Source of the DNA: a virus
Direction: 5' to 3' (one strand)
DNA: 46,400 bases
Virus record (IMG/VR): IMGVR_UViG_3300005253_000064
Coordinates: 1 to 46,400 of that record
The notes beneath the pieces are model-generated. The model was given only the letters and a program-made list of their open reading frames with translations, was not told where the DNA came from and ran no database searches. Below are positions 2,221 to 46,400 of the stretch, in pieces. Each line of letters begins with the position of its first letter. Position 1 is the stretch's first letter. Made by a program: the position numbers and the translations under genes.

Positions 2221-2314
2221 GTGTAAAAATTGCGATTTTTGGAGTTTTTGCACTTTATATTTATGTATAGACGATCCAGAAGAAACAGAGGAAGAGGCGT
2301 GTTATCTTGGCTGA
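2213..2314 (+). CDS. Tiny Cys-rich protein, 33 aa, TTG start
   Basis: The TTG start lies inside the end of the previous gene and the TGA lies inside the start of the portal gene, so the ORF fills the gap exactly. It keeps the C-x2-C-D, aromatic, C, C-I spacing of the gene before it (CKNCDFWSFC then LCIDDP) followed by an acidic tail. This is probably a truncated or minimal copy of the same zinc knuckle. It is below the size usually annotated. Confidence 0.45.
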   Translation: MTECKNCDFWSFCTLYLCIDDPEETEEEACYLG

Positions 2315-3893
2315 GGATACAGAAAAATTGCCACCGCCTTCAGCGGTATTTGTAATGGATTTTAAGAAATCAACTCAAGTAAAAACTCCACCAAAAAGCA
2401 CTGCAACCGAAGTTCGCACGCCATCAGCACTTAAACAAGGTGTAGCTTATCATTTGGTAAAATCAATGGAACACCGGAAATTTGTTAAACGTACTGATTT
2501 TGTACCTTATTACAAACCTTCGGATGATATTTATGGTTCCTCTACGGGTTTAGATGAGAGACCTTCGCTGGAAGACCTTTCTGCTATTACTAATACCCGT
2601 GTTGGGTGTGTGTTCTATGCTACTAATGGTGTAAGTGGAGATGCAATGCGCAACTGGCACGTTTTTGTTGATCCGGATTCTCAGAAAGAAGTTAGAAATA
2701 AAGACACGAAAGCTGCTTTAGATTTTGCATCTCTTTCTGATTTAAAAAACGCAGCACAGCAATATTTACGTTATGCTTTAGGTTATGGCACGTCTTGGTT
2801 AGTAAAGTATTGGGGAATTAAAAACGAGATTAAACACATGGAAGATCCACCAAAACTGGGTAAACCACCACGTAAATTCCGCGCTTTCTCCCCACGTTAT
2901 ATGCAACCCATTAATGTAGACAAATCAAATGAACTTAATTATGAGGAAGATGTTTGGAAATTCTCTGGTGGTGAGCTGAACTACAAATATGGTATTCACC
3001 AAGATAGAGTGGATGTTTTAACGTTATATCCAGAAGAAGGAAGCTGGCGCGGTCTTGCTATTGTAGAACCCGTTTGGATTCCTTTAATGGGTTATTTTAA
3101 TAGTTTTATTTATCTTACAAAAGGTCTACGACACTGGGGAGATGCTATTCCAGCAATGTTCACGGGTGATGGATTGCCGGAAGCAGGAGAAATTACTTCA
3201 GTATTAGATTTAATGGACGAGTACCAAATGAATTATAAATGGGCGCTTGGTAAGGATGATCGCTTAGAATTCATTCAAACTAAGATTGGCTCTGGTCTTA
3301 AAGAAGCATTTGAGATGTATAAGGAAGAACTTTCTTCCGCCTGGCGAATACCTTTAAACCAATTATTCGGGCGTTCTGTTGGTGGTGGTTTAATGGGCGC
3401 AGGTGCTTTAGTTTCAAAGGAAGATTATCTTCAAGAGATTTCCAATAAGCAAATGGCTATGACTGATAATATAAAGAAGATTTATATTGATGCCGGGTTT
3501 AAAATTGAGAGTTATGATCTTCTCTGGAATTTAGCAATCAAGAAAACTGATGAGCAACGCTTAAAAGAAGAAGGGATGGAAACACAGAATAAAATATTAA
3601 CTGAACAGTGGAGACAAGCTAAAGCGCAAACCAAATTAATTAATATGCAAGTAGAAGCAGCCGAGTGGCAATCTTTAATGCCAGAGCAAGAAGGAGGAGG
3701 AGCCGGTGAGGGTGGTGAGGGCGAGGGGAAAGGTGGTGGTGAGGGTGATGAAAACAAAGAGGAAATTGATGCTGATCAAATGGAAATTGCGGAACTAACA
3801 GATCTCCAGAAAGAAAAACGTAAACGCTTTTGGCAATCAATTCACATTGAAAATCACATTACATTTCCTTATGGAGGTGACCGGAGATACTAA
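2307..3893 (+). CDS. Portal protein (DUF1073-like), 528 aa
   Basis: Dodecameric head vertex through which DNA is packaged. Its position directly after terL and its length suit a portal. Recognisable regions are an N-terminal segment with PSDDIY (about residue 71), a central mixed domain, and the C-terminal helix-turn motif SSAWRIPLNQLFGRS (about 343) followed by a long helix and a Gly/Glu-rich acidic tail (about 455-495) of simple composition. The TTG at 2307 has GAGGAAGAGG upstream; no ATG precedes the conserved region. A second protein in this genome (43990-45423) shares PSDDIY and the IPxxQLF motif. Confidence 0.85.
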   Translation: MAEDTEKLPPPSAVFVMDFKKSTQVKTPPKSTATEVRTPSALKQGVAYHLVKSMEHRKFVKRTDFVPYYKPSDDIYGSSTGLDERPSLEDLSAITNTRVGCVFYATNGVSGDAMRNWHVFVDPDSQKEVRNKDTKAALDFASLSDLKNAAQQYLRYALGYGTSWLVKYWGIKNEIKHMEDPPKLGKPPRKFRAFSPRYMQPINVDKSNELNYEEDVWKFSGGELNYKYGIHQDRVDVLTLYPEEGSWRGLAIVEPVWIPLMGYFNSFIYLTKGLRHWGDAIPAMFTGDGLPEAGEITSVLDLMDEYQMNYKWALGKDDRLEFIQTKIGSGLKEAFEMYKEELSSAWRIPLNQLFGRSVGGGLMGAGALVSKEDYLQEISNKQMAMTDNIKKIYIDAGFKIESYDLLWNLAIKKTDEQRLKEEGMETQNKILTEQWRQAKAQTKLINMQVEAAEWQSLMPEQEGGGAGEGGEGEGKGGGEGDENKEEIDADQMEIAELTDLQKEKRKRFWQSIHIENHITFPYGGDRRY

Positions 3894-10333: not shown

Positions 10334-10404
10334 ATACCTATGCGCAGGTGGTCTCCTACAAGTCAGATTGTACGGTGCAAGGGTTCGAATCCCTTCATGG
10401 GTAT
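10334..10404 (+). ncRNA. tRNA-like cloverleaf element
   Basis: A 71-base element in the only sizeable gap of the head genes. The ends pair as a 9-bp stem, ATACCTATG (10334-10342) with CATGGGTAT (10396-10404), with one G-T wobble. Inside is a textbook T-arm, AAGGG-TTCGAAT-CCCTT (10379-10395), and a 5-bp anticodon-like arm, TACAA-GTCAGA-TTGTA (10357-10372). The D-arm is poor (GG/CC only), the anticodon loop has six bases instead of seven, U8 and A14 are not clearly in place, and there is no CCA. It could be a degenerate tRNA, an unusual tRNA of unclear anticodon, or a tRNA-mimicking leader. Confidence 0.55.
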
Positions 10405-26546: not shown

Positions 26547-27299
26547 CTAAGTTAGAACTAATCTTTCACCCGTTTTAGCTTTAAATAAATTCCTTATTGA
26601 ATCTTTAAATCTGATTTTATTTTTGATCTCAGGAGGTAGATTTTGAACTTGAAAAATAATTTTTTTAATATTACTCCAGGTGTTAAAGTCAGTTTGCATG
26701 TAATTTAGCTTTCCAAGCCAAATTGATTCAGTACAATAAGGAATAACTTTCATAATTAATGGGACCGGATTTAGATCCAAAAAAGGTTCTATAGAAACGC
26801 TTGTTTTCCAGTGTGCTTTATATGCTAATATTAGCGCGCCCATTCTTTCTATGAATGGTGGTGCGCCAGGTTCATAGTGCTTAAGTATAGCGTTATTATC
26901 CGAAGTAATAGTAAAGCGAAATTGGATTTGGTCTTTGAAAGCGCCAAATATATTTATAATCTTATGTATGCATATAATAGATGGTTTTGTTGTTAACAAG
27001 ATCTCATTCTCCGCCATTACTAACTTTCTGATAACTTCAAGACATGCTGCCAGAGAGTCTTCTGTAATATCATGGGACGTAGGAAACATAATACGTCCTT
27101 TCCGCTTTCTATATTCTTTATTATACGCAGTGAGATTCAATTTCATATTTTTCCATTCTTTACTGGTGGTCCGCCCGAATCGTACAACTGCCATCCTCTT
27201 AGCATAACAATAGATACAATCGTTAGAGCAACCTAAAAAGATATTTATGTTGGAATCAGCCCACTCTTTAGTCCCGCTTGTAATCTTATTTGCTGACAT
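26547..27299 (-). CDS. Radical SAM protein, DUF5131/Gp37-like, 250 aa
   Basis: The cluster motif CSNDCIYC (C-x3-C-x2-C, about residues 23-30), followed by YAKRMA, is the 4Fe-4S site of SplB-like and DUF5131 (phage Gp37/Gp68) radical SAM enzymes. Typical later signatures are MFPTSHDIT (about 93), ILLTTKPS, RFTITSDN and the SVSIEPFLD (about 168) strand. The length is normal. Substrate unknown; members may act on nucleic acids. The ATG at 27299 is used, TTG 27302 being weaker. Confidence 0.8.
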   Translation of the reverse strand: MSANKITSGTKEWADSNINIFLGCSNDCIYCYAKRMAVVRFGRTTSKEWKNMKLNLTAYNKEYRKRKGRIMFPTSHDITEDSLAACLEVIRKLVMAENEILLTTKPSIICIHKIINIFGAFKDQIQFRFTITSDNNAILKHYEPGAPPFIERMGALILAYKAHWKTSVSIEPFLDLNPVPLIMKVIPYCTESIWLGKLNYMQTDFNTWSNIKKIIFQVQNLPPEIKNKIRFKDSIRNLFKAKTGERLVLT

Positions 27300-27444
27300 C
27301 AATCCCCGCCTTCATATCTTTTAAAACCGCTTCAAAATAGTTTATTAATCGTTGTAATACTTCTTCTTTAGTTTTCACGATTTTTTTATTCCACCACATA
27401 TCAGTCCCCTTAGTAGTCATTTTAATCTTAGCAATTCGCGTCAC
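27286..27444 (-). CDS. Small basic protein, 52 aa, GTG start
   Basis: The GTG overlaps the upstream TGA (GTGA), with AAGGTGAT at ideal spacing. The product begins MTRIAKIKMTTKGTDMWWNK and is basic with a C-terminal helix; its end overlaps the radical SAM start. It fills the gap exactly. Function unknown; nucleic-acid binding is possible from charge. Confidence 0.5.
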   Translation of the reverse strand: MTRIAKIKMTTKGTDMWWNKKIVKTKEEVLQRLINYFEAVLKDMKAGIDVSK

Positions 27445-33022: not shown

Positions 33023-33289
33023 TTAATGCATTGCTAAGTCTTGATTTTGCCTTTTCTGTTGTGTTTCTCTGACAAGTCTTCTTATTTTGGTCTCATCTGA
33101 TTCTGTGAATTGCGCTATAGGAGTAGGTTTATAGTTGGCTTTTGAATGTTTTATGATTTCTCTTAATCTGTCATCAATAGCCTTTCTTATCAATTCCGAA
33201 CGTGAGAAATACAAACTGTCTTCTCCGGTCAGTTTTTCTATTGCTGCAATCCATGATTCTGGTACATTTATGGTGACAATGCGCGCCAT
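33023..33289 (-). CDS. Ribbon-helix-helix regulator, 88 aa
   Basis: RIVTINVPESWIAAIEKL with SRSELIRKAIDDRL is a textbook RHH (CopG/NikR N-terminal type): a strand, then helix, then the SRSEL(I/V)R helix. The C-terminal basic tail is polar. RHH dimers typically bind short inverted or direct repeats; those at 33683-33740 are the nearest candidates. Starts inside the upstream RHH gene. Confidence 0.8.
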   Translation of the reverse strand: MARIVTINVPESWIAAIEKLTGEDSLYFSRSELIRKAIDDRLREIIKHSKANYKPTPIAQFTESDETKIRRLVRETQQKRQNQDLAMH

Positions 33290-33549
33290 TTAGGGTGTCG
33301 CCTCCTCTCTTCTAATTCTGGATGGTGTACTATAATTTTATGGAATTCTTCCAGGTCCTTGTAATGTGGTAAATATTTCTTTAGAAAGTCTTTTAAGCTC
33401 TGTCTAATAAATGCGCTTCGGGATTGTGTTAGATTATAGCCTATAAGGATTTTTATTGCGTCATAGTACTGGTTTGGAATATTCAGAGTTATATTAATTA
33501 ATTTTTGTTTTTTTTTTGGTCTTTCCTGCTTATATTCCGTTGTTGGCAT
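33268..33549 (-). CDS. Ribbon-helix-helix regulator, 93 aa
   Basis: First gene of the long - operon. ATG 33549 (MPTTEYKQ) is taken, because a TATA-type box (33569-33579) would start the transcript almost at the ATG, giving a leaderless message. LINITLNIPNQYYDAIKILIG and SRSAFIRQSLKDFL form the RHH unit. A basic C-terminal tail ends RRRHPKWRALSP. Paralogous to the following gene; likely autoregulator of the divergent promoter. Confidence 0.75.
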   Translation of the reverse strand: MPTTEYKQERPKKKQKLINITLNIPNQYYDAIKILIGYNLTQSRSAFIRQSLKDFLKKYLPHYKDLEEFHKIIVHHPELEERRRHPKWRALSP

Positions 33550-33568
33550 AATTTTCAATAAATTAGAA

Positions 33569-38276: not shown

Positions 38277-38554
38277 TATTCCGCCACGTCATCAATTTTT
38301 TTTTGGGGATTATCCCCTATATTAATAATGATCCTGGCATCCAATCCCACATCATTAAGGGGATTAAGATAATTTAGCGGATGATCTACCTCCGGTGCTG
38401 AAATAGACAACGAATATATACCACCATCAGACTTATCTTTCAGCGTGACCGTAAGCATTTGTTTAGTTTCCTTAGCTTTCTTATAGTACTTACTTACGGT
38501 CTTTATCTCAGCCACTGCAAGCTGAACGTCAAATTTCTTTATTTTCTTAGCCAT
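38276..38554 (-). CDS. Beta-rich protein, 92 aa
   Basis: KKIKKFDVQLAVAEIKTVSKYYKKA, then MLTVTLKDKSDGGIYSLSISAP and ARIIINIGDN. GGAG precedes the ATG. Beta-sheet protein of unknown role, forming a two-gene set with its downstream neighbour. Confidence 0.55.
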   Translation of the reverse strand: MAKKIKKFDVQLAVAEIKTVSKYYKKAKETKQMLTVTLKDKSDGGIYSLSISAPEVDHPLNYLNPLNDVGLDARIIINIGDNPQKKIDDVAE

Positions 38555-38566
38555 TATAATTTCTCC

Positions 38567-38734
38567 TTAATATATTTTTTTTTTTTTAATATCGTCAATA
38601 TATTTTTTATAACGTGTTATGATTAATTCCTCTACAATATCCTTAAAGGTCTTTTTTAACTCCATTTTGAGAAAATCCAGATATTTTGATACATCTTTAT
38701 CTAAATTAATCTTTAATTGGTCATTTAGAGGCAT
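38567..38734 (-). CDS. RHH-like protein, 55 aa
   Basis: MPLNDQLKINLDKDVSKYLDF, with LKKTFKDIVEELI as second helix, matches the RHH unit closely. First gene of a short - operon, facing the AT-rich region 38735-39036; a good candidate for binding the palindromes there. Confidence 0.6.
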   Translation of the reverse strand: MPLNDQLKINLDKDVSKYLDFLKMELKKTFKDIVEELIITRYKKYIDDIKKKKIY

Positions 38735-38852
38735 TAAATGTTAAGATTATCGCAGTGAATAAATACTTAAGTACAAAAATACCTTTTCCCATAATAATGG
38801 ATTAATAAAAAAAGAAAAAAATATTAACTGGATAATATCTATAGAAATTTTT

Positions 38853-38871
38853 TTTGTTGAATTTCAACAAA
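38853..38871. repeat. Palindrome TTTGTTGAATTTCAACAAA
   Basis: A perfect 9+1+9 inverted repeat centred on T at 38862, beside the divergent start sites. It shares three end bases with the next palindrome, so two binding sites may overlap. Confidence 0.6.
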
Positions 38872-38887
38872 TTAAATAATTTAATTT
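38869..38887. repeat. A/T palindrome AAATTAAATAATTTAATTT, copy 1
   Basis: A perfect 9+1+9 inverted repeat. Its 17-base core recurs exactly at 39199-39215, after the gene at 39037. Confidence 0.5.
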
Positions 38888-39036
38888 TAAATCCTATTTT
38901 TTTTTTTAACTTTTTTCTAATTTTAAATGACCTGGGAATTAGGAAGATTTATATACTATTTTTTTAATAAAAGATTGAGCCATATCTTTAATTAGATTAA
39001 CCCAAGCTTAAAATGTGATGCTACTTTCCCCCCATT

Positions 39037-39204
39037 ATGATTGAAAATGAGTGTAAAGCCGGAAACGAAAAAGATTGTAAAAATAATAGGGAAGAAAAGA
39101 AATGTGTAATCACTTGTGGGTGTGGTAGATTATTTGCCTTAAAATTAAGAAAACTGATAGGGATAGAAAATAAATTTACATTAGCAGCAACAGGACAAAA
39201 TTAA
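39037..39204 (+). CDS. Small Cys-rich protein, 55 aa
   Basis: Starts MIENECKAGNEKDCKNN and has CVITCGCGR, with a helical tail. No ribosome site (CCCCCC precedes the ATG). It stands alone on the + strand between two - operons and is flanked by the two copies of the A/T palindrome. It may be a small regulator; support is moderate. Confidence 0.45.
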   Translation: MIENECKAGNEKDCKNNREEKKCVITCGCGRLFALKLRKLIGIENKFTLAATGQN

Positions 39205-39215
39205 ATAATTTAATT
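39199..39215. repeat. A/T palindrome, copy 2
   Basis: AATTAAATAATTTAATT, identical to the core of 38869-38887. Lies at the convergent gene end, where it could also serve as a bidirectional transcription stop. Confidence 0.5.
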
Positions 39216-40569
39216 AAAAATCAGTGATCCGTTTATACCTGGTCTTGGATAAATTTCTCTCCGCCATTTCACAGTATTCTTCAGACGCTTCAAATCCTAT
39301 ATAGTCTCTCCCCAGTTTCCATGCTTCTAATAGAGTAATTCCAGTGCCAGCGAAAGGATCAAGTACAATTCCTCTCTTAGATTTACCACCACACTTGCAC
39401 TTGGAATATCCTATAAACTTTCTATACGTATGATGATGCAATCCATCTCCACCCTGTATTGTTTTTGGTCCCAATCCTATAGACTTTCTTCCAGGTTCTA
39501 ATTCTTTAATAATTTTATATTCTTTTATGGCAAGTTTTCCACACCCACCACATACATAACGTGGGCTTCCTGCTTTTATCATAGGCTGTACCAGTTTTGG
39601 TGGAAATGTGGCAAAATGAAACTCTTTATTTGCCTTAGTATTGATGGACCATACAGCACGCTTATTTTTATCTAATGACCAATATTCATTAAAAGCCAGT
39701 GGTTTAGTGTTATCTGTTTTATTTTTTTTTGAATATTTTCCAGAATCTACTTTTCCAGGTTTATGTTTTCTCCTACTTAAATTAGCTTTAGTCTGTGCAA
39801 TTGGCTCTTTAAGCTGTTCGAAATAATATTTCTCTGGAACAGACCAAACGGTGCGCATGGGTTTCCCATCTGGGTGATATTCTCTGGTTCCTTTAGAAAA
39901 CATTTTATTCCCCAAAACTCCTTCCTCTGGATTATCATATTTATTTCCTCTATTCTCTTTTTCTCCAGTAGACCTTTCTGGTTCTTTATGTGGTATTCTC
40001 TGTAGTGAAAAATTATATTTCTTTCGCTTAACAAAAAAATAGATATATTCAAAATCCACAGTGAAGCGGTCTTTAGCGCTGGAAGGCATAGCATTTGGTT
40101 TATGCCATACAATCTTGTTTCTAAGTGTCCAGCCATGATTATCAATCATTTCAATAACAAAACGGTCTGGAATCATTAGAAGGCATTTAATATAATTCTT
40201 ATTAGAACCATAAGAGTCTCCAAGATTCACCCAACAAGTCCCGGTTGGCTTTAAGACTTGCCAAATAAGGTCATATATATCACAGAGATGTTTTATGAAT
40301 AATTCAAAATTAGGTTCTAATCCCAATGCACCAAACCAAGCACCACAGTGAACACAGAAGACTGGCTCTTTAGCAAGATTGAAGGAATTAAAATCATTCC
40401 AGAGATGGTCACAGTTTGGATCATCATCCCAAATAGAACCATCTAAGCCATAATCTCTTAGATTCCAATAGGGTGGAGATGTAATAACGCAATCAACTTG
40501 CTGCTGGTCCGCAATCATTTGGTTTAAGCCAATGCGGCAGTCTACATTATGTAGCATATTAATTTCCAT
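39214..40569 (-). CDS. DNA methyltransferase, N4-cytosine/N6-adenine type, 451 aa
   Basis: Motif IV TSPPYWNLRDYG (about residues 30-41) precedes motif I LDPFAGTGITLLEA (about 405-418), the beta order. TSPPY fits N4-cytosine MTases, although N6-adenine enzymes can have it. Two extra zinc sites are visible, CVHCGAWFG and CGGCGK with KCKCGG. It may protect viral DNA from host restriction. No restriction enzyme is adjacent. The ATG at 40569 has GGAGGA about nine bases upstream; the last gene of its operon. Confidence 0.85.
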   Translation of the reverse strand: MEINMLHNVDCRIGLNQMIADQQQVDCVITSPPYWNLRDYGLDGSIWDDDPNCDHLWNDFNSFNLAKEPVFCVHCGAWFGALGLEPNFELFIKHLCDIYDLIWQVLKPTGTCWVNLGDSYGSNKNYIKCLLMIPDRFVIEMIDNHGWTLRNKIVWHKPNAMPSSAKDRFTVDFEYIYFFVKRKKYNFSLQRIPHKEPERSTGEKENRGNKYDNPEEGVLGNKMFSKGTREYHPDGKPMRTVWSVPEKYYFEQLKEPIAQTKANLSRRKHKPGKVDSGKYSKKNKTDNTKPLAFNEYWSLDKNKRAVWSINTKANKEFHFATFPPKLVQPMIKAGSPRYVCGGCGKLAIKEYKIIKELEPGRKSIGLGPKTIQGGDGLHHHTYRKFIGYSKCKCGGKSKRGIVLDPFAGTGITLLEAWKLGRDYIGFEASEEYCEMAERNLSKTRYKRITDF

Positions 40570-41335
40570 CTATAAAATCCTCCATTGTTTTTTGGAAACA
40601 TGGCAAACCAGCTCTTACTGCTGCTTTTGAACTTAGATAATACTGGGCTGTATCATACATTCTAAAAGCTATTATTATTGGACATGCTGTGCAGCCCGAA
40701 TGCTTAATTTCCTTAAAATCTTTAGAAAATAAATATTCTCTAAAAGGCTTCACGCTTCTTGCATCCCTAAAAGGATAACCAAACCAGATATCACCAGCTT
40801 TTTTATGTAAGCGAAGGAATGTATCTTTTTGCCTAAGTTCATGCAAGTGCATATTTCTGAAGCGGGATTCATAAGGACAAATTGAGCTTATGATTATAAA
40901 ACTTTTAATTTCTTCCCCATCAGGGACTTTTCTTATTTTTCTATAGAACTTTTTTGCGGGAAACTTCTTGAGTTTATTACAACATTCAAATTTACTTCGG
41001 TCATATTTCTTATTTTTAATATCCTCTCTTACTTCTGGTATTCTTAGAAAACTCCGCCTTAGAATATCCCACACATTTTCCTTCTTTAGGTTTGGAGTTG
41101 TTTCTAAATATTCAAATTTAGTAATCGCCAGGAGTTTTTTCATTGTATCAAGTGAACTCTTTAGCTCTAAAAATGTTTTGTTATGGACCAGCTTTACATT
41201 GGTAAAACCATAATACCATAATAGAAGTGCTGCTGTAGTAGAATGATAACCACCGGAGATTAAGCAATAAATAATATCAAATCTTTTAATCTCTTCAATA
41301 AACTTAGTGCTTAATTCCACAGTCATCAGTGTCAT
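40559..41335 (-). CDS. PAPS-reductase-like PP-loop protein, about 258 aa
   Basis: The N-terminal FDIIYCLISGGYHSTTAALL carries the PP-loop (SGG-x2-S/T) but with Tyr-His where the common form has x-Asp. Two Cys regions follow, CCNKLKKFP and CTACP, as in CysH-like and DndC-type proteins that bind an iron-sulfur cluster. In phages, such enzymes often lie beside methyltransferases, and a role in DNA modification or sulfur transfer to DNA is possible. The start is uncertain (ATG 41335, ATG 41326 or TTG 41350); it overlaps the upstream gene. Confidence 0.65.
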   Translation of the reverse strand: MTLMTVELSTKFIEEIKRFDIIYCLISGGYHSTTAALLLWYYGFTNVKLVHNKTFLELKSSLDTMKKLLAITKFEYLETTPNLKKENVWDILRRSFLRIPEVREDIKNKKYDRSKFECCNKLKKFPAKKFYRKIRKVPDGEEIKSFIIISSICPYESRFRNMHLHELRQKDTFLRLHKKAGDIWFGYPFRDARSVKPFREYLFSKDFKEIKHSGCTACPIIIAFRMYDTAQYYLSSKAAVRAGLPCFQKTMEDFIDGN

Positions 41336-41705
41336 CCATTTGAAATTCAATTAGCTTTAAGATTTGGTCACTTGACAAATTCAGCCTTTTTGAGACCTCT
41401 ACAATTCCCTTAAGTTTCGGGCATATTACAATACATTCAGCAGAGATTTTCTCTAAGTGTTTTTCTCTTGTCCTTCGATTATATGGATTCTCTACACACC
41501 AACTTTCGTGCTGCGAAAGTGAATGCCTACTTGGAATTTTCTTGACTACGCCTAAATGTTCAAGTGTCGTACATCCACAGAACTGACAAGATAAGGCTTC
41601 CTCTTTTTCCCTCTTAGCCATATAAGCGTTCATTTTAGCACTTTTTTCTAATATCTTTTCCCTACGCTTTAGTGCTTCAGCACCTTCACGATATTCATTT
41701 TCCAC
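41304..41705 (-). CDS. Zinc-finger helical protein, 133 aa
   Basis: CQFCGCTTLEHLGVV ... QHESWC is a C-x2-C ... H-x3-C zinc unit in the middle; helices flank it. The C-terminus has LNLSSDQILKLIEFQ. Its gene overlaps the PP-loop gene by about 30 bases, suggesting coupled synthesis. Confidence 0.55.
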   Translation of the reverse strand: MENEYREGAEALKRREKILEKSAKMNAYMAKREKEEALSCQFCGCTTLEHLGVVKKIPSRHSLSQHESWCVENPYNRRTREKHLEKISAECIVICPKLKGIVEVSKRLNLSSDQILKLIEFQMDDTDDCGIKH

Positions 41706-41722
41706 TTTTTATCACCAATTTA

Positions 41723-43369
41723 TTAAAATCTATTAGGATCTGAATAATCAACATCATTTAGAATCTTTTCTTTCTCTTTTACTGTTCTATAATCTTCTTT
41801 CTCATCCAGTGCTTCTACTAAATAACGGTCTATACCTTCAGCTTCAATTTCCTCAAGCTCTCCGTCTATAACTTTATGTGCAATCTTAATGTTAAGATAA
41901 TGTTTACGGTCCTTACTCCGTTCTATTTTACTATAGGCTTTCCTCAGAGATTGAGTCACCATAGTGGAAGTAATTGCCTTAGCACCATGCTGGGCGCGAA
42001 ACTCATTAATAGCATCATTCATAGCATAATATTCCGTGCGTGCACCGTCTACAACTTCACAGCACTCATCCAGAAATAGTTTCACGGGATTTATATCTAT
42101 TTGCCATAATCCTTTTAGTCTCTCTACGTCATCCCATTCTTTAGGGAATCCACCGCGCTCATCCAGTCGCTTATAGGCTTGTAGAGCTTTATTCAGTAGA
42201 CCAGAGAATTCTTGAGAAGTACATATTATATCTAAAATACGTGGTTTCTTTACTTTAACATTTGGATTTGACTCGTCCTCTATGGTCATCTTATCTTTAG
42301 TTTTAAACTCGCAAAAACAGCTTTCTAATATCCATCTGCGCCAGAACTCAGTCCCCATATCTTTTTCCACTGGCGGAAGTGTGTTACAAGTAAATAATAG
42401 TTTACATCTATTATACCAGCTTACATTATCTACTACATATTTAACACGCCCGCTTAATACTTTATTAGTTACAATCAAGCGAAACATATCAGAAATACCA
42501 ACTTTTGATTTTGGTAAATCATCCCAAATGTTGAGGATTTTTCCTTTGGTCTTTATAACTTGAAATTTTCCACTTAAACTCTGAAGTCTAAGCTGAGAGA
42601 TTAATGTACCATATCTTTTTCCTTCAAGGAAACTCATTAAGAGCTGAATAAAAGTAGTTTTTCCAGTAGCAGGTGGACCATGAATAATAAAAGCTTTTTG
42701 ATGTTCAATAGTACCATATAGAAAATAGCCAATCATTTCATATATTAAAGGAACAGCTTCGAATCCAAATACATCTGAAAGAAACTCGTCAATCTTTAAG
42801 CATTCTTTTTCTGAGTCATAGGTCACAGGGAATTGAATAAAACTCTTATATATATCTCCATGAAAGTCTGGTGTTGGATGTTCTTTAAAGTATACGGTCC
42901 CTAAGATCCATTCCGGGTTATTATGTGGAAACTCTGAATCAAATTTAATTGAAGGATCATAACCGGGATTTCTTACCATGCCTTCAGTGCCATTTAGATA
43001 ATATAGCCCATTCAATACATTTATTACAGTTGGTTCTATGTCAAACTCCGTCATACTACAATATGTTAGATTGCGTATAAATTCAAGTATCATATTCTGT
43101 CTTGAGATCGTTAAAGCGTAATGTTTCTTTATGCCTTTAGAATCATATAAGACCAAGATCCCCGCTAAGTCTGTAATAAATGCATGTATCCGGGTTTCTG
43201 CGTCATTCCCACTTATGAATACACCATTTCTGTAGAGACAAAACTCTTTATTCTCTCTTAAAGTGGCGATTCTATTCTCTTTACAAATGGCTTGAGCAAT
43301 GATTCTTTCTATCTGGCGTTCTTCTTCCTTCTTCTCTGGCTCTATAGGTGCATCCATCTCTTCCATCAT
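41723..43369 (-). CDS. D5-type primase-helicase (SF3 helicase), 548 aa
   Basis: Replication helicase. Walker A is GPPATGKTTF (about residues 230-238), Walker B ILNIWDDLP (about 275-283), and sensor LLFTCNTLPPVEKDMG (about 326-341) with the arginine finger region WRRW. D5_N is visible upstream as INVLNGLYYLNG (about 117-128). A C-terminal winged-helix-like part (about 440-510) follows. No TOPRIM or AEP primase domain is apparent, so priming may need another protein. Overlaps the upstream stop (ATGA). Confidence 0.85.
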   Translation of the reverse strand: MMEEMDAPIEPEKKEEERQIERIIAQAICKENRIATLRENKEFCLYRNGVFISGNDAETRIHAFITDLAGILVLYDSKGIKKHYALTISRQNMILEFIRNLTYCSMTEFDIEPTVINVLNGLYYLNGTEGMVRNPGYDPSIKFDSEFPHNNPEWILGTVYFKEHPTPDFHGDIYKSFIQFPVTYDSEKECLKIDEFLSDVFGFEAVPLIYEMIGYFLYGTIEHQKAFIIHGPPATGKTTFIQLLMSFLEGKRYGTLISQLRLQSLSGKFQVIKTKGKILNIWDDLPKSKVGISDMFRLIVTNKVLSGRVKYVVDNVSWYNRCKLLFTCNTLPPVEKDMGTEFWRRWILESCFCEFKTKDKMTIEDESNPNVKVKKPRILDIICTSQEFSGLLNKALQAYKRLDERGGFPKEWDDVERLKGLWQIDINPVKLFLDECCEVVDGARTEYYAMNDAINEFRAQHGAKAITSTMVTQSLRKAYSKIERSKDRKHYLNIKIAHKVIDGELEEIEAEGIDRYLVEALDEKEDYRTVKEKEKILNDVDYSDPNRF

Positions 43370-43710
43370 TTCAGCTTCAACCTCTCCAAGTCTGGTTTAT
43401 CTACTTTTAAAGCATTTATTAATGAATTCCAGCTTTCAATGTCTATGCACTTATTCATAGTATCTGCTAATTGTTGTTTAATCCCACCTAACTCAGCCTT
43501 AAGAAACTCTACAATAGACCATTTACTCATTGTAAAATCGTGACAGTGTTCTAAGAATTTAGGATTTATCTCGTCATTAGCGTCACATACATAACAGTTC
43601 TTATATTCTTCTATAAAGAAATCATCGTTTAGGAGATGTTTACACAGCCTACAATGAAGCGGTGGTAATTTATAGCGTACTTTACCTTTTCTTTTTCCTT
43701 TTTTTGCCAT
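43366..43710 (-). CDS. Zinc protein in replication operon, 114 aa
   Basis: The ATG at 43710 (MAKKGKRKGKVRYK) is chosen over 43746, which would run well into the upstream gene. Basic N-terminus, then CRLCKHLL ... CYVCDAND, a two-knuckle zinc ribbon, with an HCHDF nearby. The C-terminal helix includes NALKVDKPDLERLK. Probably binds DNA and assists the D5 helicase; inferred from position. Confidence 0.6.
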   Translation of the reverse strand: MAKKGKRKGKVRYKLPPLHCRLCKHLLNDDFFIEEYKNCYVCDANDEINPKFLEHCHDFTMSKWSIVEFLKAELGGIKQQLADTMNKCIDIESWNSLINALKVDKPDLERLKLK

Positions 43711-43993
43711 GCACCGTCCTCCATTGGACTCTGCTATACTTTTCAATCTCCCCTTCTGATTCCAAGCGTACTAATACATAACGTATTCTATGGCATAATG
43801 TTTTTTTACTCTTGAAGAAGGGATCATCCTGGCGTTTGGCTGATTGCATAACACTCTTTAAAGGTATGTTATGATAATCTGCAATAACGTCACATGCTAA
43901 AGCAGCACTACTGAAATACCTACTATGTTCTGTGCTTATTAGCTCTACACACTTATCATATAATTCTGGTCCTGCTAAATTTACTTCCATCAT
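43682..43993 (-). CDS. Winged-helix protein, 103 aa
   Basis: AALACDVIADYHNIPLKSVMQ, then TLCHRIRYVLVRLESEGEIEK (recognition helix and start of wing), and basic tail GKKRKKKR. It could bind the origin or regulate the operon. Overlaps the portal-like gene by four bases (ATGA). Confidence 0.6.
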   Translation of the reverse strand: MMEVNLAGPELYDKCVELISTEHSRYFSSAALACDVIADYHNIPLKSVMQSAKRQDDPFFKSKKTLCHRIRYVLVRLESEGEIEKYSRVQWRTVHGKKRKKKR

Positions 43994-45423
43994 AATTTTA
44001 ACCTTTCTTTCTCTTTAATTTCGGCACTCCCAAAGCAATCGCAGCAATATAACACTATATGCTTAGAAACCCATATACGCTTTAAATCATAATATTCTAT
44101 ATAGGTGTGTGGTGGATTAACTGAAACAAAACCGTTAAAATCTAATTCTTCATTACAACTATCTCCATAGCATTCGTACAGCTTGGCTTTTTTAGAATAG
44201 CTTTCTGCTTTACCCATTAAGTATCCATCCAAATAAGCTTGCAGCTTTCTCTTTTTGCTTGCCGCTAATGCTTCCTTTTTCTGTTCCTCAAAATATTTAG
44301 CCCATGGAATCTTACTTCCATCCTTTTTAACAACCCACTTGCTTAAATCATAAGGTTGAGCTTCTGCTACATGATTCATTTTATTCAAGAAGTCTCCAGC
44401 CTCATTTGTCTCAAATAGCCTAATTGAGGGTGAAATTGCCTTAAACATTACATTTGTTATATCTGCAACAGGTTTTGAAATAACTTCCAACATTTCTCTC
44501 AACTGTGCTGCGATTTTTTCTTGCTCAAATTTTAAAAACTCTTCCTCTACAAGTCTCTGTTCCAATAATATTAACTGTTCACGTGTCATTCCAGACCTGC
44601 GTGTAAATAACTGGTCTACTGGAATCCCCATACCTGCGCTAATGTCTTGCTTCAGAAATTCTATATATTCTGTGTATCTTCCCGGTGAACGGGCGCGGGT
44701 GCAAAACTCTAAATTATTGCCAGCATTTTTTTCAATCATAATTTTTTGCCAGGCGAATAATTTTCTTTCGTCTATAGAAATATCACCTGGTTCTTCGCAA
44801 AAATTCTCGTCAATTTCTGAACCTGGTCCAGCGATAAATACCGGTTTCTGCCATTTATTTAACATATCCATACTTATTGAAATAGGTAATCCCTCTCCTA
44901 ATCTTGCTGCTGCTATTCTTCCTTTTAACTCTCGCTGAATTGCTTCTGTTTGTTCTGGTGTAAACAGTTTCTTATATTCTTCTTCAGACACTTCTGCGCC
45001 CGTTTTTATAAACCCAAGTTTATCAAGTGGATAACCTAATATCGTTGGTACATTATTCCAATCAAATAAGACTGGTGGTGGTGGTGTTTGGTTTACTTCA
45101 GCTTGAAATGGTGCAGAATTATTTTCTATATCATGGCATCGTGTCACTGTTGCGGCGACAAATATATCTTCTCCTTGCCCTTCTGGTCTATAAGCTGCTT
45201 CGATCTTAGCTGGATCAAAACTGTATATATCATCTGAAGGCTGGAAAAATGGAACTTGGTCTCCATAAGCTAAGAAATGGTCCATTTGATTGGAGAGTTT
45301 GGTCATTTGCTCTCTAACCCTCTCTTCAAGTCTATTCCAAGAACGGGGAAAGAAATGCTTCCAAACCCAGTTTCTAATCTTTCTGAAAGTAATATTTCTA
45401 ATTAATAATAAGATCTTATTCAT
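43990..45423 (-). CDS. Second portal-like protein, 477 aa
   Basis: Two segments match the main portal in order: VPFFQPSDDIY (about 57-67; FVPYYKPSDDIY in the main portal) and GMGIPVDQLFTRRS (about 262-275; AWRIPLNQLFGRS in the main portal), the latter followed by a long helix as in portals. The middle differs, with LGEGLPISISMDMLNKWQKP. A C-terminal Cys-rich region (CYGDSC ... CCDCF) is absent from the main portal. It heads the replication operon rather than the head operon. It may be a diverged paralogue with another role. Confidence 0.6.
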   Translation of the reverse strand: MNKILLLIRNITFRKIRNWVWKHFFPRSWNRLEERVREQMTKLSNQMDHFLAYGDQVPFFQPSDDIYSFDPAKIEAAYRPEGQGEDIFVAATVTRCHDIENNSAPFQAEVNQTPPPPVLFDWNNVPTILGYPLDKLGFIKTGAEVSEEEYKKLFTPEQTEAIQRELKGRIAAARLGEGLPISISMDMLNKWQKPVFIAGPGSEIDENFCEEPGDISIDERKLFAWQKIMIEKNAGNNLEFCTRARSPGRYTEYIEFLKQDISAGMGIPVDQLFTRRSGMTREQLILLEQRLVEEEFLKFEQEKIAAQLREMLEVISKPVADITNVMFKAISPSIRLFETNEAGDFLNKMNHVAEAQPYDLSKWVVKKDGSKIPWAKYFEEQKKEALAASKKRKLQAYLDGYLMGKAESYSKKAKLYECYGDSCNEELDFNGFVSVNPPHTYIEYYDLKRIWVSKHIVLYCCDCFGSAEIKEKERLKL

Positions 45424-45922
45424 TTCTAATTAACTCACGATAAATTTTTGGTTATAATTTATTTATGTGCAATTCTTTAAAAAGGTGAGACCACAGTGGA
45501 TTAATAAAAAATAAAGCTGTAAAAGTGTAAAAAATCAAGAACACAACTTGCAGTTTTGCATCCCCTCCCCTATCTTCTAATTATCTTATCACGTTAATAT
45601 AATACCATCTCTCTATGCATAAGGGTAAATATTATCTTGTAAAATTGAAACATACTCGTATTAGTATTACAATATTACATCTTTTATTTCGATAAATACT
45701 TAATAATATCAAATATTAACACGCTGTCACATTATCCCAAATACCCATAGACAACCTTAAATAATCTAAAAAATACCTTCTTTAATAAAGGGATTTAGCC
45801 TATAAGGTGCTGCTGAAACAAGAATGGGGAACTCACCACTCCTCATTCACTCAGCCCCCCTAATCCCAGTATACCATTTTGCCCGCAATTATAATATAAC
45901 ATCTCCCCGCGAATAGCAAATT
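45424..45922. promoter_or_regulatory. Divergent control region between portal-like gene and terL
   Basis: About 500 bases without an ORF. On the - strand, a TATA-type element (about 45452-45465) lies 29-42 bases before the portal-like ATG. On the + strand, TATAATATA (45890-45898) lies about 25-33 before the terL ATG, and there is no ribosome site, so both messages are probably leaderless. The stretch about 45792-45880 is C/G-richer (GGGGAACTCACC, CAGCCCCCC) and could be a packaging or origin element. I see no long repeats. Confidence 0.5.
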
Positions 45923-46400
45923 ATGAGCCAATCCACCTCAGAAAAAAAGGAGCCAACTGTTCGAGAATTGGTCGATACCTTCTTGAAACGCAATCCAGAT
46001 GCGGATAATAATTTGTTATATAAAACATTTCCAAGTCGTGGTGTAAGTACACTTCGTGCCTATCATGCTGACTTTCTAAGACAGCTTAAAAGTGCCAGGG
46101 GCGTAAAAAAGAAAGCTAAAAAAACAATGCTTTCATTACCAAAAAAGTTAGATTTCTTAACATTCTGTCGCACTTTATCATTTCCGCCCTATTATGGCTT
46201 ATTCAATTGGCAAAAGGAGTGTTATCGCGTGGTATGGAATAACAAGATTTCGATGGTGGTGATACCGCGTGATCATGGGAAATCAATATTATGGGGAAAT
46301 ATCAGCCAGCACGCCATCCAGTATGAAGGATACGATGTTTTGTACTTAGGGTGGACAGACCGTAGGAAGGAAGTTGCTGAGAATATTTATAACTTTTTTC
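45923..46400 (+). CDS. terL: Terminase large subunit, N-terminal part of junction-spanning gene
   Basis: The ATG at 45923 starts MSQSTSEKKEPTVRELVDTF; 119 codons lead to 46279, and the frame continues through position 1 in phase to 1596 (650 aa). The last 121 bases duplicate the beginning of the window. The N-terminus contains LSFPPYYGLFNWQKECYRVV and then VVIPRDHGKSIL, the adenine-binding and Walker A region. The start was chosen because the upstream frame has stops and a TATA box lies at the right distance. Confidence 0.95.
   Translation, partial: MSQSTSEKKEPTVRELVDTFLKRNPDADNNLLYKTFPSRGVSTLRAYHADFLRQLKSARGVKKKAKKTMLSLPKKLDFLTFCRTLSFPPYYGLFNWQKECYRVVWNNKISMVVIPRDHGKSILWGNISQHAIQYEGYDVLYLGWTDRRKEVAENIYNFF
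46280..46400. repeat. Direct terminal repeat, right copy
   Basis: Identical to 1-121; see the left copy. It marks the overlap of a closed molecule. Confidence 0.95.

What the first reader, a model, noticed from the sequence alone, without database searches (positions are those of the whole stretch)
43990..45423. Second portal-like protein in the replication operon
The 477-aa product keeps PSDDIY and the IPxxQLF helix region of the main portal, but has a different middle, a Cys-rich C-terminus, and heads an operon of winged-helix, D5 helicase and modification genes. A head-tail virus normally needs one portal. A paralogue expressed with replication genes could act in a different complex, in initiation of packaging from replicating DNA, or replace the portal under some conditions.
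Basis: partly seen in the sequence, partly recalled or inferred. Interest (0 to 1): 0.75.

Follow-up and report, generated by a model that had tools for sequence, protein, structure and literature searches.

The report
Divergent portal-like protein in early operon
A tailed virus with no known close relatives carries, besides its normal DNA-entry ("portal") gene, a second gene that keeps two short pieces of a portal protein but has a different middle and a cysteine-rich tail, and sits first in its DNA-replication operon; it is probably a portal relative put to another use, but nothing here shows what it does.

Summary
Observation confirmed, with one addition: the gene is on the MINUS strand (43990-45423). 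It heads a tightly coupled minus-strand operon (ATGA overlap with the next gene) that includes a D5-type helicase and a DNA methylase. The main portal, 2307-3893+, is a real portal (PF06381, 2e-12). The second protein shares two collinear blocks with it: aa 43-68 (LSNQMDH..VPFFQPSDDIY; E 3e-4) and aa 236-275 (..LEF..IPVDQLF; E 0.004). The two-block score beats 4000 of 4000 shuffles and every other gene of the virus. Independently, the lambda-portal model PF05136 matches only this gene in the whole genome (aa 230-278, E 5.5e-4 for the genome), exactly over the second block. So portal ancestry of at least the core is probable, not chance. The middle (aa 69-229) and a CxxxxC...CCxC tail match nothing. 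The fold could not be tested: AlphaFold fails on it (pLDDT 36) and equally on the true portal (34). No homologue of either portal was found in the collections searched. Best reading: a diverged, rebuilt portal homologue made with the replication genes that docks to a shared partner, not the packaging portal itself. Function is unproven.

The parts
43990..45423 (-). 477-aa portal-like protein (P0002), first gene of the minus-strand replication operon
45220..45297 (-). shared N-terminal block, aa 43-68 (LSNQMDHFLAYGDQVPFFQPSDDIYS), matching aa 50-77 of the main portal
   Evidence: BLASTP E 3e-4; PxxDDIY pattern 2 in genome vs 0.02 expected
44590..44736 (-). portal core signature, aa 230-278 (..NNLEFCTRARSPGRYTEYIEFLKQDISAGMGIPVDQLFTRRSG); stem/tunnel region of portals (structural assignment from general knowledge of portals)
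   Evidence: PF05136 E 5.5e-4, only place in the genome; BLASTP/hhalign to main portal 0.004 / 6e-4; lambda B aa 336-373
44737..45219 (-). middle, aa 69-229, unlike the main portal and any family
   Evidence: no match in Pfam or PHROGs; no alignment
44035..44172 (-). Cys-rich tail C418-x4-C423 ... C460-C461-x-C463, zinc-ribbon-like by inspection only
   Evidence: sequence; no profile match
43682..43993 (-).
41723..43369 (-). D5/P4-type helicase, same operon
   Evidence: TIGR01613 1.6e-26; phrog_864 2e-36; PF19263 2.6e-14
40559..41350 (-). weakly PAPS-reductase-like protein, same operon
   Evidence: phrog_424 E 0.0027
39214..40569 (-). N4/N6 DNA methylase, same operon
   Evidence: PF01555 5e-42
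2307..3893 (+). main portal protein (528 aa, P0001), in the structural module
   Evidence: PF06381 2.3e-12, over cut-off; phrog_146 1.2e-6
2454..2537 (+). N-terminal block of the main portal (aa 50-77) matching the second protein
3258..3383 (+). core signature of the main portal (aa 318-359) matching the second protein
45452..45459 (-). AATTATAA, 28 nt upstream of the portal-like gene's ATG (possible core promoter); the same 8-mer lies 28 nt upstream of the divergent terminase gene (45887-45894 +)

Best explanation
The gene encodes a strongly diverged, internally rebuilt homologue of the portal protein. Supported by sequence: it keeps an N-terminal peptide and the portal core signature, lacks a recognisable portal wing, ends in a Cys-rich tail, and is encoded first in the replication operon, divergent from the terminase gene. 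Inferred: it is not the packaging portal of the virion but an accessory, portal-derived protein. Through the shared N-terminal peptide it docks to a partner that the true portal also binds (terminase, scaffold/capsid protein or the portal itself). Through the retained helical core and possible zinc tail it oligomerises or contacts DNA, linking newly replicated DNA to packaging. Confidence in portal ancestry of the core is about 0.8, in 'not the packaging portal' about 0.7, and in the linking role about 0.2.
For: Two collinear blocks shared with the main portal; 0 of 4000 shuffles and no other gene reach the two-block score. hhalign independently picks the core block, E 6e-4. PF05136 rings only here in six frames of the genome, E 5.5e-4, and is the best Pfam hit of the isolated segment (0.011), while the reversed protein gives no portal. 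The best local match to lambda portal B is the same block. The main portal is separately present beside the terminase. The ATGA overlap couples the gene to the replication operon.
Against: Each single similarity is weak: below Pfam's cut-off, and lambda B alone ranks it second among the virus's proteins at E 0.6. About 160 aa of the middle match nothing. No homologue was found in which conservation of the blocks could be tested. The fold could not be predicted (pLDDT 36). The docking and linking role rests on location and a shared peptide only.
Confidence: 0.45

Rival explanations
1. A conditional or alternative portal: it forms a dodecameric ring and can replace or mix with the main portal, for example in early or aberrant particles.
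For: Retains the N-terminal block and core signature of the main portal.
Against: Recognisable portal wing missing; the stretch between the blocks is about 75 aa shorter than in the main portal; encoded with the replication genes, not the structural ones; Cys-rich tail absent from the main portal.
Confidence: 0.12
2. A portal-derived interference protein: a subunit that poisons or titrates portal assembly of competing satellites or superinfecting viruses, made early.
For: Partial portal with shared docking peptide, position in the replication operon.
Against: No competitor known; nothing in PADLOC matches; the shared block is with its own portal, which it would also poison.
Confidence: 0.1
3. 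A decaying relic of a portal gene duplication or acquisition with no function.
For: Divergent, with no relatives found.
Against: Intact 477-aa frame, first in a compact coupled operon, both signature motifs kept.
Confidence: 0.08
4. Not a portal homologue: an orphan replication protein whose two short motifs resemble the portal by chance or by convergence on a shared binding partner.
For: Only about 65 of 477 residues align; single matches are weak; an HK97-type portal (L008) carries FNPSDDIY at a different position, so that peptide can recur.
Against: Collinearity, 0 of 4000 shuffles, and an independent portal profile on the same block.
Confidence: 0.2

Closest known systems
Phage_portal_2 (PF05136), lambda portal B family
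   Same: core signature aa 230-278 aligns to profile positions 285-333; the best segment with lambda B is the same block
   Different: score far below the family cut-off (13.9 vs 32.9 bits); no match to the rest of the 354-position profile; different middle and tail
Phage_portal_3 (PF06381) as represented by this virus's own main portal
   Same: N-terminal PSDDIY block and the IPxxQLF core, in the same order
   Different: PF06381 itself does not hit the second protein; wing region not recognisable, Cys-rich tail added, different operon
Two portal genes in Wolbachia WO-like islands (PMC11376236)
   Same: two portal proteins in one element
   Different: those are prophage islands with portals next to ankyrin-repeat genes; no rebuilt portal in a replication operon is described in the passage read

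Membership tests
tailed-virus portal protein | sequence profile match over the portal core | tested here: inconclusive
   PF05136 unique in genome, E 5.5e-4, but 13.9 bits against a cut-off of 32.9
tailed-virus portal protein | N-terminal wing domain and both stem helices | tested here: inconclusive
   no match of aa 68-235 to any family; the fold is unknown
tailed-virus portal protein | portal fold (wing, stem, clip, crown) | tested here: inconclusive
   AlphaFold single-sequence pLDDT 36.4; the genuine portal also fails at 34.5, so the test says nothing
tailed-virus portal protein | gene in the packaging/structural module | tested here: not met
   divergent from the terminase and first in the replication operon; the main portal holds the structural position
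tailed-virus portal protein | dodecameric ring at one capsid vertex | not testable with these tools
   needs biochemistry, microscopy or virion mass spectrometry
zinc-ribbon protein (tail) | two CxxC-like knuckles on a beta-ribbon binding zinc | tested here: inconclusive
   Cys at 418, 423, 460, 461, 463; no zinc-ribbon profile matches

The most novel reading that the evidence does not exclude
A portal core has been turned into a DNA-encircling or DNA-binding component of the replication machinery, made with the D5-type helicase, so that a ring protein of packaging serves in replication or hands replicated DNA to the terminase.
Probability: 0.08. Interest if true: 0.85.

Novelty: new variant of a known kind. 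Interest (0 to 1): 0.45.

Why it matters
Tailed viruses normally have one portal, and it is a strictly structural protein. A second, rebuilt portal homologue in the replication operon would be a rare case of a portal being reused and would offer a direct handle on how replication and packaging are connected. The papers searched here hold no such case, but those searches were narrow and the evidence comes from one orphan genome.

Tried and rejected
Homologue hunts gave nothing. For the second protein: IMG/VR, INPHARED, PLSDB and GTDB. For the main portal, terminase and capsid protein: IMG/VR and INPHARED found nothing closer than a terminase match at E 5e-4. The [VIM]-P-x-[FY]-x-P-S-D-D-I-Y pattern had no match in IMG/VR or GTDB. 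The relaxed F-x-P-S-D-D-I-Y pattern hit ten contigs, none related; one is an HK97-type portal with the peptide at another position, taken as recurrence because it was selected by the pattern. Phages with the closest D5 helicases have no equivalent gene in that neighbourhood by their annotation. Structure prediction was useless for both proteins, so no fold search was run. PF04860, PF05133 and PF07230 do not hit the genome (PF07230 rang in no control, so it is uninformative). Defence families: none for this protein. Literature: no second portal in an early operon found. A MAFFT alignment of four portal cores misaligned the HK97-type row and was not used.

Full report
The window is, as far as can be told, a complete virus genome: the two ends share a 121-base direct repeat, and the terminase gene runs across the junction. 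Its portal, terminase and putative capsid genes are very divergent. Searches of IMG/VR and annotated phages with these proteins return nothing closer than a terminase match at E 5e-4. The tools warn that very near records may be left out.

The finding is real. On the minus strand, 43990-45423 is an intact 477-codon frame. It begins the minus-strand gene run that faces the terminase gene across a 500-base gap. Its stop overlaps the next start as ATGA, and the genes that follow (103 aa, 126 aa, D5-type helicase, 133 aa, PAPS-reductase-like, DNA methylase) mostly overlap or abut. The helicase and the methylase are firm; the winged-helix label is not supported by any profile. The same 8-mer AATTATAA lies 28 nt upstream of both divergent ATGs, which supports the two starts but says nothing certain about timing.

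The main portal at 2307-3893 is firm (PF06381, E 2.3e-12, over the cut-off). The second protein and the main portal share two blocks in the same order: aa 43-68 with 50-77 (E 3e-4) and aa 236-275 with 318-356 (E 0.004). These E-values are for one comparison, so I tested the pair as a whole. The sum of the two block scores is 117; none of 4000 shuffles of the second protein reaches it (largest 115), and the best other gene of the virus scores 89 (a Gumbel fit gives p about 7e-4). With profiles, hhalign chooses the second block at E 6e-4.

An independent line does not use the main portal. Pfam's lambda-family portal model is the only family that the whole protein matches below E 1 (0.064) and the best for segment 215-345 (0.011); the reversed protein matches no portal. 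Scanned over all six frames of the genome at E up to 10, this model rings at one place only, aa 230-278 of this protein, E 5.5e-4. That covers the second shared block. In lambda portal B the corresponding block is aa 336-373, GDSLNLQTAQDTDNGYSVFEQSLLRYIAAGLGVSYEQL. From general knowledge of portal structures this lies in the stem/tunnel part of the subunit; that placement was not computed here. The score is far below the family's cut-off, so this is ancestry evidence, not formal membership. The lambda sequence alone is a weak guide (E 0.6 among the window's proteins, ranking second).

The rest of the protein is unlike the main portal. Residues 68-235 match no family, and the stretch between the two blocks is about 75 residues shorter than in the main portal. 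The tail carries five cysteines at 418, 423, 460, 461 and 463 in a zinc-ribbon-like arrangement that no profile recognises. The two proteins answer to different portal models: PF06381 hits only the main portal and PF05136 only the second protein. This fits an old duplication or a separate acquisition better than a recent copy.

The fold could not be tested. AlphaFold without an alignment gives pLDDT 36.4 for the second protein and 34.5 for the genuine portal. Because the positive control fails too, the failure says nothing. No structure search was run on these models.

Interpretation. That the core derives from a portal is probable (about 0.8). That it works as a second packaging portal is not supported: it lacks a recognisable wing, has an added tail and sits with replication genes. 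My preferred reading is an accessory protein that keeps the peptide for a shared partner and the helical core for assembly, and links replication to packaging. The steps 'homologous core', 'shared peptide' and 'replication operon' rest on results; 'docking', 'oligomerisation' and 'linking' are inference. Nothing in the papers searched describes such a gene, although two portal proteins in one prophage island are reported for Wolbachia (PMC11376236).

Noticed in passing
10335-10404 (+): tRNA-like element between the putative capsid gene and the next gene: by eye a 7-bp acceptor stem, a 5-bp T-arm with GTTCGAATC and a 5-bp anticodon stem with a 6-nt loop; ARAGORN calls it only in relaxed modes with anticodon '(ca)' and Rfam has no tRNA match. 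Possibly a decayed tRNA or tRNA mimic.
   Followed up: partly
33023-33289 and 33268-33558 (-): two overlapping neighbouring genes whose products resemble each other (37% over 46 aa, E 3e-6): a small tandem duplication.
   Followed up: no
45452-45459 (-) and 45887-45894 (+): the same 8-mer AATTATAA sits exactly 28 nt upstream of both divergent ATGs (second portal and terminase); possible shared core promoter with short leaders.
   Followed up: partly
38500-46400: intrinsic-terminator-like sites are fewer than in shuffles (1 vs mean 4.9) and sigma-70-like sites are at chance level; compatible with an archaeal host, not proof.
   Followed up: no
26547-27302 (-): radical-SAM / spore-photoproduct-lyase-like protein, phrog_13321 E 2e-15.
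   Followed up: no
L008:4568-5923 (-): a portal that looks HK97-type (by eye) in IMG/VR carries FNPSDDIYGLSP in the middle of the protein, close to the PSDDIY peptide but at another position.
   Followed up: partly
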